Source: Lanius collurio (taxonomy: Eukaryota; Chordata; Aves; Passeriformes; Laniidae). Taken from it: a stretch of DNA of 64,000 nt. Shown here piece after piece: positions 22,740 through 25,089 of this stretch (positions are counted from its first letter, which is position 1; each line of letters starts with the position of its first letter). The translations under genes were made by a program, and so were the position numbers. The stretch covers positions 1,573,386 to 1,637,385 of the forward strand of contig JACBWW010000050.1 of NCBI GenBank assembly GCA_020086605.1, given 5' to 3'. Below the pieces are notes generated by a model that worked only from the letters and a program-made list of their open reading frames with translations, was not told the DNA's origin and ran no database searches.

Positions 22740-23042
22740 TGTTGAGGTACCTCTCCCCTGAGGTCCTGGGGGGAGGGACCCTGCAGTGTACAGGTCTGTC
22801 CCTGTCCCTGTCCCTATGTCATGTGTGGCCTGTGCCTGTCTTCTGACTGGTTCTTGGGGGCTACCCGGGCTCAGGAAGAAGGGGGGAGTCTCGTGATTGT
22901 GTGGTGAGTCGGCCATGGGATCTCAGCCTGATGGGGCTGGAGGGAAATAAACATCCATCAACATCTATAGAAATATTGCTTCATATTTCCTTCCAAGTTC
23001 ATCGCTGTCTTATACATGTTGTAAGGATTCTCCATTATAACA
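22740..23042 (+). repeat. 5' LTR of the Y-box-carrying element
   Basis: 303 bp, starting TGTTGAGGTACC and ending ATTATAACA (TATAACA here against TACAACA in the other copy). It carries a short tccctg hexamer tract and an AATAAA at 22946-22951, about 95 bases before the LTR end, as expected for an R/U5 boundary. It has one fewer tccctg unit than the 3' LTR. Confidence 0.93.
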
Positions 23043-23044
23043 AA

Positions 23045-23062
23045 TGGTGGAGAAATGGGGAC
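23045..23062 (+). other. Candidate primer-binding site
   Basis: 'tggtggagaaatggggac' begins two bases after the 5' LTR with the TGG that pairs with a tRNA CCA end. I cannot assign the tRNA without comparison to a tRNA set. Confidence 0.5.
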
Positions 23063-23159
23063 AAACGATCCCGGGAGAAAGTGATTCTTGAGTAAATTCT
23101 GGATATCTCTTCTTGCTTTTGTTTTTCTGTCCCATCTCTGAACAATGCAGGACTCATAG

Positions 23160-23430
23160 AAAAACTCATGGCTGTCTGAACTACAAACAGACATTTACTT
23201 TAAAAAGGTTCTTGAACAGCAGTATGTAGATTTTAGCTTAATTCAAGCTCAAAAAGAACTAAGATGCTTCCTAGCATGTTTGTTTAAAAACTTCTACGTT
23301 TCTTGGGATTTGATTCTTACCAAAGACTTTTGGGAGAATGTTTGGACACAATTAATTTCCGAATCAAAAAATATGCCGATGCAAGACTATTTCCGTAAAT
23401 ATTACCTGATGACAGAGAGTGTTAAGCAGT
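23160..23430 (+). pseudogene. Gag-like remnant of the LTR element
   Basis: An AT-rich open stretch in the frame that continues to 23786, without an ATG in its first part. Its residues show a pattern like the N-terminal matrix region of betaretrovirus-type Gag: a Leu-rich segment, then Ser-Trp-Asp and a DFWENVWTQL segment in the position of the usual Trp...Val-Gly...Leu motif. The similarity is by eye and weak. No capsid or zinc-knuckle part follows. Composition changes sharply to GC-rich near 23430, where the viral part appears to end. Confidence 0.35.
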
Positions 23431-23948
23431 GTCGGCTGTGTCCCGCTGCTGTTTTAGTGGCAAACACGTGGTCGAGCAGCACGCACGTTGCAGCGGGCTA
23501 CTCCGTTCCCTGGAGACCACGCGGTCCCCAGCCGCGGCAGCCCAGTGCACTGCAGGCGGCGGCAAGGGAACTCCCGCATGTGGGAGAGCCAGTGAGGCCA
23601 GGCACGGCGGGAGTGAAGCCAGGCATGGCGGGAGTGGGGCCGGTGGCGAGAGGGGTGGTGGCGGGAGAGGAGTCAGGAGCGGCGCGGTGGCGATTGTGTC
23701 TGGCGGTGTTCACCCTGAGACACACGAGCGGCGCGGTGGCGCCGGTGAGGGGAAGCCGCGTGGGGCCACCGGGGCAACCCAGTTAACGGGACAGTGCAGC
23801 GCGGGGCCGTGCCAAGCCCAAGCAGAATCACATGCAGAGCACAGAGCCAGCGGCAAGGACACCGCAAGAGAGCGCAGAGCCCAGAAACGCGCCGGAGTGA
23901 CGCCGCCTGGAAAGCATGGAGCGGCGGCCACCTGGGAGACCGACCTAG
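23431..23948 (+). other. GC-rich segment between Gag remnant and Y-box gene
   Basis: About 520 bp, rich in CpG and GGCGGG-type words, unlike everything around it. It has internal short repeats: 'ggcgggagtg' recurs at intervals near 23600-23640, and 'gagcggcgcggtggcg' occurs near 23678 and 23728. It has open frames but no recognised protein. The likeliest reading is the GC-rich 5' untranslated or promoter-proximal part of the captured host transcript. Confidence 0.45.
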
Positions 23949-24535
23949 ATGTTAGAGTCGGCAAAGCAGCAGCCAGAAGCGGTGTCTGCGATCCCAGCTA
24001 CAGCAGCTCCAGCGCAAGAGCGAGCAAACCTGAAAGTGAAACCAGTAAGACAGAGATGAAGAGCATCTGCTACACAGGAAAAAGAAAAAATCATCATAGA
24101 TAAGGTTTGGGGGACTGTGAAGTGGTGTAACGTAAAGAACCATTATGGCTTTATAACCAGATGGGACACTAGAGAAGATGTTTTTGTGCATCAAACTGCC
24201 ATAATGAAAACTAACCCGCCAAAATATATTCCAAGCTTAAGAGAGGGAGAAAAGTAGAGTTTAAAATTGTACAAGGAAGAAAGGGCCCACAGGCAGCATG
24301 TGTTACAGGCCCTGGGAGTGTTCCCATGAAGGGTAGTAGATATGCTCCAAACTGCAGCAACGCTAGACAGTATACCCATAGTCCCTATCCTTTTCCCTAT
24401 TCCACCTTTTCCTTTTACCCCATGCCCTTTTATCCCCAGTACATGCCCAATCCATATCTCCATCCCTGGTTCCCCTCACAAAACTATGCATTTCCATTTG
24501 CCATGAACCCCTTTGCAATGCCAATGGGGGGATGA
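23949..24535 (+). pseudogene. Captured Y-box protein gene (cold-shock domain), disrupted
   Basis: A single intronless reading of about 195 codons from ATG 23949 to TGA 24533-24535. The N-terminus (MLESAKQQPEAVSAIPATAA) has the Gln/Pro/Ala style of Y-box proteins. A cold-shock domain follows at about 24087-24330, with KVWGTVKWCNVKNHYGFI (RNP1-like), EDVFVHQTAI (RNP2-like), NPPKYIPSLREGEK, and after the break VTGPGSVPMKGSRYAP. These match YBX1/2/3 (KVLGTVKWFNVRNGYGFI, EDVFVHQTAI, VTGPGGVPVQGSKYA). YBX genes have introns, so their absence points to capture through RNA. There are two lesions: an in-frame TGA at 24057-24059 and a one-base loss in the A-run near 24250-24253. The tail is Tyr/Phe/Pro/Met-rich, unlike the charged tail of YBX proteins. 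Family assignment is sure; the exact parent is not. Confidence 0.9.
24331..24535 (+). other. Aromatic, proline-rich tail of the captured gene
   Basis: About 67 residues after the cold-shock domain, made almost only of Tyr, Phe, Pro, Met, Asn and Ser (for example YPFPYSTFSFYPMPFYPQYM), ending MPMGG before TGA. It replaces the alternating basic/acidic islands of vertebrate Y-box proteins. It remains open through to the stop. Function unknown; a low-complexity, self-associating segment is inference only. Confidence 0.7.
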
Positions 24536-24780
24536 AAAGGAGGAAGGGAAGAAATTAATTGTCATTTTCTAAGATTCCCACAGGTACAGAAAAGAAGAAA
24601 CCCTTTCCTGCCTCAGTTTCCTCACAAAGCATGTTCAGAGAGTTCTGCCAGACCTAAGATGCTCCAGAGAAAATCTGTTTGGACACCTGGGGACTCAAAA
24701 ATTGGCTTATTTTCTTTAGAAATTGATATGTTTATCCAGCTATATCCAATGCTCATTTTATTTAAAAAGAAAGGGTGAAT
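24536..24780 (+). other. 3' untranslated part and polypurine tract of the LTR element
   Basis: No coding signal. It ends in the purine run 'aaaaagaaaggg' (24764-24775) five bases before the 3' LTR, a plausible plus-strand primer for reverse transcription. Confidence 0.7.
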
Positions 24781-25089
24781 TGTTGAGGTACCTCTCCCCA
24801 AGGTCCCAGGGGGTGGGACCCTGCAGTGTACAGGTCTGTCCCTGTCCCTGTCCCTGTCCCTATGTCACCTGTGGCCTGTGCCTGTCTTCTGATTGGTTGT
24901 TGGGGGGCTTCCTGGGCTCAGGAAGAAGGGGGGAGTCTCGTGATTGTGTGGTGAGTCAGCCATGGGATCTCAGCCTGATGGGGCTGGAGGGAAATAAACA
25001 TCCATCAACATCTATAGAAATATTGCTTCATATTTCCTTCCAAGTTCATTGCTGTCTTATACTTGTTGTAAGGATTCCTCATTACAACA
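24781..25089 (+). repeat. 3' LTR of the Y-box-carrying element
   Basis: 309 bp, starting TGTTGAGGTACC and ending TTACAACA. It has an AATAAA at 24993-24998 and a CCAAT box in reverse (gattggttg). It matches the 5' LTR over its full length, with an extra tccctg unit. Confidence 0.93.

What the first reader, a model, noticed from the sequence alone, without database searches (positions are those of the whole stretch)
22740..25089. LTR retroelement that carries a Y-box (cold-shock domain) gene in place of viral genes
Seen: two LTRs with matched ends, a 6-bp target duplication, a primer-site candidate, a polypurine tract, and between them an intronless gene with the Y-box cold-shock signature (KVWGTVKW, NHYGFI, EDVFVHQTAI, VTGPGSVP). 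No reverse transcriptase, integrase or envelope is present. Known: Y-box proteins bind and package mRNA, and acutely transforming retroviruses show that host mRNA can replace viral genes inside LTRs. Inference: a host Y-box mRNA was captured, and the resulting defective element was mobilised by a helper and fixed in the germ line. I do not recall any described retroelement carrying a Y-box protein. A packaged RNA-binding protein could help the element's own RNA, which would give it a selfish reason to keep the gene.
Basis: partly seen in the sequence, partly recalled or inferred. Interest (0 to 1): 0.92.

Follow-up and report, generated by a model that had tools for sequence, protein, structure and literature searches.

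The report
Jumping element carrying Gag–Y-box fusion
What appears to be a bird genome holds a large family of short virus-like jumping elements that captured a host RNA-binding (Y-box) gene, fused it to a piece of retroviral Gag, and seem to have kept that fused protein working while they multiplied.

The parts
22734..22739 (.). target site duplication ATTTTA, left
22740..23042 (+). 5' LTR (TG...CA; AATAAA at 22946-22951)
23045..23062 (+). primer binding site candidate; resembles the complement of a tRNA-Ala 3' end (tRNA sequence recalled, not tested)
   Evidence: similar letters at the same position in other copies
23145..23444 (+). remnant of the Gag matrix (MA) part of the fusion frame; stop at 23157-23159
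   Evidence: tblastn with P0003 1-101, 68%; fold of an intact copy's matrix:
23445..24083 (+). GC-rich linker region (R/G/P/A-rich where open; degenerate here)
   Evidence: part of one open frame in the copies
24084..24254 (+). Y-box cold-shock domain, first part (KVWGTVKW...NHYGFI...EDVFVHQTAI), followed by stop 24255-24257
24206..24346 (+). Y-box cold-shock domain, second part in another frame (VEFKIVQGRKGPQAACVTGPGSVP...)
24350..24535 (+). aromatic/proline-rich C-terminal tail (FYPMPFYP...MNPFAMPMGG) and stop
24536..24763 (+). 3' untranslated part; no poly(A) tract seen; no codon periodicity across copies
24764..24775 (+). polypurine tract AAAAAGAAAGGG
24781..25089 (+). 3' LTR
25090..25095 (.). 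target site duplication ATTTTA, right

Best explanation
This is a decayed copy of a non-autonomous class II (alpha/beta-like) endogenous retrovirus family that captured a spliced host Y-box mRNA. The replicating form encodes one ~505-residue protein: retroviral matrix domain, basic R/G/P-rich linker, Y-box cold-shock domain and a short aromatic tail. That protein has no capsid or nucleocapsid, and the paired-LTR copies have no room for pol or env. SHOWN: the family, its retroviral mode of insertion, the open fusion frames, and purifying selection on matrix and cold-shock domain. INFERRED: the matrix part delivers the protein to particles built by a helper retrovirus; the cold-shock domain and basic linker bind the element's own RNA, standing in for nucleocapsid, so that the RNA is stabilised and packaged; helper reverse transcriptase and integrase then copy and insert it.
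For: Family: 40 of 40 scored DNA matches to the Y-box part, the 39 others at 80-87%; 40 of 40 for a second subfamily, the 39 others at 91-93%; 150 of 150 scored CSD matches over the Pfam cut-off; all these lists are capped. Integration: 49 of 63 loci with paired LTRs, 2.0-2.9 kb; TSD 6/6 at fixed ends in 8 of 12 copies of one subfamily; with end positions slid, 6/6 in 13 of 50 and at least 5/6 in 17 of 50. Fusion frame: 13 of 150 CSD matches in stop-free frames of 504-509 aa, 10 of these 13 also found by the matrix query with the same frame length; 5 of 5 long-frame copies read run matrix-linker-CSD-tail in one frame; LTRs of three of them differ by K2P 0.017-0.029. Selection. Matrix fold. W, F, F and H of the cold-shock domain are among the columns conserved at 90% or more in a 14-row alignment, one row of which lacks the domain (their RNA-binding role is recalled). 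Other species: crow P0003 (cluster of 24) and P0007, jay P0013. Role: YB-1 is reported to stabilise HIV RNA, to affect MLV vector and MMTV production in an RNA-dependent manner, and perhaps to bind HIV matrix (PMC6040738, abstract and introduction read).
Against: No helper was identified (that search did not complete). No expression, RNA-binding or packaging data. The matrix starts ME- in the long-frame copies and the fusion proteins whose start was read, so there is no N-terminal glycine for myristoylation. Pfam and PDB sequence searches do not recognise the matrix; it rests on predicted fold, with Foldseek E-values above 0.001 although ranks 1-4 are Rous sarcoma virus matrix, and helical bundles can score high by chance. 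Crow and jay proteins are database gene models. Linker and tail are weakly constrained (0.70, 0.72). 3'UTR pseudo-frames also give dN/dS below 1 (0.61-0.76), so the contrast with 0.43 is smaller than with 1. Matrix and Y-box frames are out of register in most decayed copies. Loci were cut 1.5 kb on each side of the Y-box, so longer elements could not have shown paired LTRs (14 of 63 did not meet the criterion).
Confidence: 0.6

Rival explanations
1. Passenger: the Y-box was captured by accident and hitchhikes in a family mobilised by cis signals alone (LTRs, PBS, packaging signal); the protein does nothing.
For: Many copies are broken, the window's included; linker and tail are near neutral; tail alone shows no significant codon-position effect (p 0.32).
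Against: Variants shared by 4 or more of 64 copies sit at codon positions 70/46/99 (p 5e-5), whereas singletons do not (120/122/98, p 0.21) and the 3'UTR does not (23/20/23, p 0.87); true-frame dN/dS 0.43 against 0.86 and 1.04 in the other frames; matrix 0.19 and CSD 0.27 in five open frames.
Confidence: 0.12
2. Host-facing role: the fusion acts on the host (mRNA translation or stress granules, growth, or interference with other retroviruses, Fv1-like), and selection reflects that or domestication of some copies.
For: Y-box proteins control mRNA translation (PMC6040738 introduction); Gag proteins of pol-less ERVs such as Bik-1 and ERNI act in embryos (PMC10996621, abstract and passages); gag-onc fusions act on cells (recalled).
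Against: The signal is spread over dispersed copies of several subfamilies, as expected for element-level selection. Synteny across species was not tested.
Confidence: 0.19
3. Processed Y-box pseudogene that landed inside an older LTR element.
For: The gene is intronless.
Against: No poly(A) tract seen at 24536-24780; same LTR-Gag-Y-box-LTR order in dozens of places with separate target duplications.
Confidence: 0.01
4. Accessory gene of a full-length autonomous retrovirus: the short copies are deletion derivatives of a larger virus that carried Gag-Y-box besides pol and env.
For: Two different matrix types accompany the same Y-box subfamily (L042 and L074), suggesting exchange with other retroviruses; elements longer than the fetched flanks could not be seen.
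Against: All 49 paired-LTR copies are 2.0-2.9 kb; in the open frames matrix runs straight into linker and Y-box without capsid.
Confidence: 0.08

Closest known systems
Crocodilian CrocERV29 (KIT-ligand) and CrocERV31 (nectin3) gene captures (PMC4299795, passages read)
   Same: ERV lineages that captured a host mRNA and multiplied with it; the KIT-ligand frames are reported under purifying selection
   Different: There the gene sits between pol and env (KIT-ligand) or replaces env (nectin3); here it is fused to a matrix-only Gag in a ~2.4-kb element without pol, and the captured protein is of a nucleic-acid-binding family
Acute transforming avian retroviruses with gag-onc fusions (P47 gag-crk of CT10 is the top fold match of the matrix model in BFVD)
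   Same: Gag matrix joined in one frame to a captured host protein; defective, helper-dependent (recalled)
   Different: Oncoprotein and laboratory isolates there (recalled); here an RNA-binding-type domain in a family with at least 150 scored matches in one genome
Gag-only non-autonomous ERVs: zebrafish Bik-1/Bik-2, chicken ENS-1/ERNI (PMC10996621, abstract and passages read)
   Same: LTR elements without pol that keep one Gag protein
   Different: Their Gag keeps a capsid-like fold (stated for ERNI, with Bik-1 similar) and no captured host domain is described in the passages I saw; here capsid is absent and a Y-box domain is present
Vertebrate Y-box proteins YBX1/YBX2/YBX3
   Same: Cold-shock domain of YBX type with its GPGGVPVKGSRYAPN-like extension; up to 69% identity to guineafowl YBX1 among the non-host matches of this genome
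   Different: Lacks the alternating basic/acidic C-terminal domain; has matrix, linker and an aromatic tail instead; groups outside the canonical clade (100/99)

Membership tests
Class II (alpha/beta-like) endogenous retrovirus | TG...CA LTRs flanking the element, PBS and PPT | tested here: met
   PBS is a candidate only
Class II (alpha/beta-like) endogenous retrovirus | 6-bp target duplication | tested here: met
   6/6 in 8 of 12 at fixed ends; with ends slid, 6/6 in 13 of 50 and at least 5/6 in 17 of 50, 21 of the 50 gave no scorable ends
Class II (alpha/beta-like) endogenous retrovirus | Matrix domain of retroviral fold | tested here: met
Class II (alpha/beta-like) endogenous retrovirus | Placement by reverse transcriptase tree | not testable with these tools
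   the copies read have no pol; no autonomous relative was found because the search did not complete
Y-box protein family | Cold-shock domain with RNP1/RNP2 of YBX type | tested here: met
Y-box protein family | Basic/acidic repeat C-terminal domain | tested here: not met
   replaced by a short aromatic/proline tail; so Y-box-derived, not a canonical Y-box protein
gag-onc type transduced host gene | Gag and host protein in one frame | tested here: met
   crow and jay models; not met in the decayed window copy itself
gag-onc type transduced host gene | Spliced (intronless) host sequence while the host gene remains elsewhere | tested here: met
   host YBX1 exons at C64:2927037-2928113, 98% to guineafowl; element CSD contiguous
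gag-onc type transduced host gene | Mobilised by a helper virus | tested here: inconclusive
   no room for pol in the 49 paired-LTR copies; helper search did not complete
Processed pseudogene | Own poly(A) tail inside the LTRs and presence at one locus only | tested here: not met
   an inner duplication was not searched for separately

The most novel reading that the evidence does not exclude
A retrovirus lineage traded capsid and nucleocapsid for a host RNA-packaging protein: matrix plus Y-box is a minimal, self-serving RNA-loading protein that hands the element's RNA to another virus's particles. With it the lineage spread to perhaps a thousand copies in this genome, and lives in corvids too, over millions of years.
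Probability: 0.4. Interest if true: 0.92.

Novelty: new variant of a known kind. Interest (0 to 1): 0.87.

Why it matters
Host-gene capture by retroviruses is mostly known from oncogenes, receptors and ligands. Here the captured protein belongs to the cell's own mRNA-packaging machinery, is fused to a Gag domain, and has been kept under selection through many insertions. That makes a natural experiment on what a retroelement minimally needs to get its RNA packaged. It may also explain some of the 'uncharacterized proteins' annotated in songbird genomes. The role of YB-1 as a retroviral cofactor, so far studied by knock-down and overexpression, gets an evolutionary test.

Tried and rejected
Rejected: chance similarity; single-locus processed pseudogene; Y-box as a free-standing gene (an ATG at 23949 in the window falls where the long-frame copies have linker). 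The fall of dN/dS with dS, first read as support, was dropped: 3'UTR pseudo-frames fall likewise, so it is a binning effect. The frame relation of matrix and Y-box in decayed copies is scrambled (7/6/6 and 6/4/3; 11/9/8); only long-frame copies show the fusion. The best paralogue match changes with the copy (YBX1 for the window piece, and for P0008; YBX2 for L014), so the donor is unresolved. The whole-protein fold of P0003 was poor (pLDDT 42) and not used. No relative of P0003 in IMG/VR contigs; no Rfam match and no tRNA in the window. Paper searches were for this finding: three gave no paper, and the rows shown of the others (capped lists) describe no Y-box-carrying retroelement; two were for background. 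The library lacks most subscription papers and nearly all preprints.

Rows dropped: L030 (near-identical small contig of L029), L070 (same place as L048) and L024 (masked N); L030 and L024 before the counts; L030 and L070. In one search the mismatched-pairing control (0.000 for 6/6, 0.006 for at least 5/6) reuses end positions already chosen, so it understates chance; the fixed-end count does not have this fault.

Not done: helper search, orthologous insertion sites in other birds, expression, species identification of the window (bird is inferred from its relatives).

Full report
1. Observation. The window holds a complete LTR element at 22740-25089. The LTRs (22740-23042, 24781-25089) differ at 16 of 302 aligned sites (K2P 0.055). 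ATTTTA flanks both ends. After the 5' LTR come a PBS candidate, a Gag-like stretch, a GC-rich stretch, the Y-box cold-shock domain, a short 3' untranslated part and a polypurine tract. Pfam finds the cold-shock domain (CSD) at 1e-13 on the first part; the second part, in another frame, is just under the cut-off. The nearest solved structure is human YB-1, 3.7e-20. The Y-box frame is broken in this copy by stops and a frame change. A self-search of the window with the element's pieces found no second copy.

2. It is a family. The Y-box part gave 40 of 40 scored matches, the 39 others at 80-87%, out of 1115 first-look candidates. The Gag piece gave 40 of 40 and the LTR 41 matches. Mapping the four pieces on 48 fetched loci (some overlapping) shows LTR - Gag - GC-rich - Y-box - LTR in many of them. 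A second Y-box subfamily has 40 of 40 scored matches, the 39 others at 91-93%. With the Pfam CSD profile, all 150 scored candidates of 1213 pass the cut-off; not all were read, and a few could be other cold-shock genes. With guineafowl YBX1 as query, 2 of 124 matches are exons of the host YBX1 gene (C64, 98% identity); the other 122 are 43-69% identical. Of 63 loci examined, 49 have paired LTRs (at least 180 aligned sites), length 1998-2931, median 2382 bases, LTR K2P median 0.104 (0.034-0.204). Loci were cut 1.5 kb either side of the Y-box, so longer elements could not be seen among the other 14. Target duplications: at fixed ends 6/6 in 8 of 12 copies of one subfamily; with ends allowed to slide, 6/6 in 13 of 50 and at least 5/6 in 17 of 50, 21 giving no scorable ends; mismatched pairings give 0.000 and 0.006, a control that understates chance because ends were already chosen. 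LTRs without an adjacent element and with 6-bp duplications also occur (L004, L006). This is retroviral integration of the whole unit, many times.

3. The protein. In one search, 13 of 150 matches lie in stop-free frames of 504-509 residues; the matrix query returns 10 of these 13 with the same frame length. I read five long-frame copies, three of the 13 and two others. All five run in one frame from the matrix part through an R/G/P-rich linker and the cold-shock domain to the aromatic tail; the two fetched last were cut just inside the matrix start. LTRs of the first three differ by K2P 0.017, 0.029 and 0.025 over 243-250 sites, and two show clear 6-bp duplications. With 2-3.3e-9 changes per site and year (recalled) these are about 3-7 million years old, and the window copy about 8-14. 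In decayed copies matrix and Y-box are often out of register.

5. Other species. The open frame of L018 finds 8 proteins, seven of them 'uncharacterized proteins' of Corvus moneduloides. P0003 (440 aa, cluster of 24 members) and P0007 begin with the matrix part and end with Y-box and tail. P0013 from Aphelocoma coerulescens has the second matrix type with a Y-box (120 of 1992 hits were listed, most of them canonical Y-box proteins). These are database gene models. P0024 (Mimus melanotis, partial) and P0008 (organism unnamed) are less derived Y-box proteins that share residues with the element form. The matrix query alone finds 4 proteins, all crow and all with a CSD.

6. Origin. In a tree of 26 cold-shock domains the canonical YBX1, YBX2 and YBX3 form one group (100/99), and the element sequences with P0008 and P0024 fall outside it. 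This fits a single capture followed by divergence; the tree is unrooted and short (92 columns), and does not say which paralogue was the donor.

7. Selection. On 64 copies, variants shared by at least four copies fall at codon positions 70/46/99 (p 5e-5), singletons at 120/122/98 (p 0.21), and 3'UTR shared variants at 23/20/23 (p 0.87); the effect comes from the CSD part (47/29/72), the tail alone is not significant (23/17/27, p 0.32). Median pairwise dN/dS is 0.43 in the true frame, 0.86 and 1.04 in the other two, and 0.61-0.76 in 3'UTR pseudo-frames (pairs are not independent). A first run on 34 copies, with shared meaning at least three, gave the same picture (63/47/87 shared against 122/102/88 singletons, p 0.001). 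In the five open frames pooled dN/dS is 0.19 for matrix, 0.27 for CSD, 0.70 for linker and 0.72 for tail; choosing open frames biases against stops, not against missense changes. So copies that gave rise to further copies kept matrix and CSD; copies decay after insertion.

8. Mechanism. Shown: mobile family, fusion frame, selection on two folded domains, conserved residues at known nucleic-acid-binding positions (recalled roles). Inferred: the protein binds element RNA and brings it to helper particles. YB-1 is reported to stabilise HIV RNA, to affect MLV vector and MMTV production in an RNA-dependent manner, and perhaps to bind HIV matrix (PMC6040738, introduction). A fusion of matrix with a Y-box domain would make such a contact permanent. 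A host-facing role is the main rival. On rechecking, the cut of the loci leaves more room for a longer ancestral virus, so that rival was raised slightly and the main reading lowered slightly.

9. Novelty. Crocodilian ERVs captured KIT-ligand (under purifying selection) and nectin3 (PMC4299795, passages). Bik-1/Bik-2 and ENS-1 are pol-less elements with one Gag protein (PMC10996621, abstract and passages). gag-onc viruses fuse Gag to host proteins (recalled). A pol-less germ-line family with a Gag matrix-Y-box fusion under selection was in none of the rows shown by eight paper searches. I call it a new variant of a known kind.

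Noticed in passing
window 23240-24039 against L002/L040, L041, L018 (all contig C50): The window copy is a mosaic: 23240-23739 is 97-100% identical to one or two other copies on the same 5.2-Mb contig and 23840-24039 is 100% identical to a third, while 24040-24839 reaches at most 95% to any fetched locus. 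Local gene conversion or recombination is likely.
   Followed up: partly
L042 and L074: The same Y-box subfamily occurs with two clearly different Gag matrix types, which suggests exchange with other retroviruses.
   Followed up: partly
P0008 and P0024: Two Y-box proteins (unnamed source; mockingbird Mimus melanotis) look intermediate between host YBX1 and the element form; P0008 has a longer tail. They may be an early form of the element or unfused Y-box genes.
   Followed up: partly
P0011 and P0012: Metagenome proteins of 611 and 550 residues in which several Y-box-like cold-shock domains can be seen in a row (by eye).
   Followed up: no
window 28900-29440: Minisatellite: about 11 copies of a 50-base unit, 96% matches.
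   Followed up: no
window 25720-25900, with copies near 13400, 19000, 33150, 41400, 44900, 62500: A dispersed repeat of about 100-200 bases, 80-90% identical in the best rows, on both strands; possibly a CR1-type LINE (recalled, not tested).
   Followed up: no
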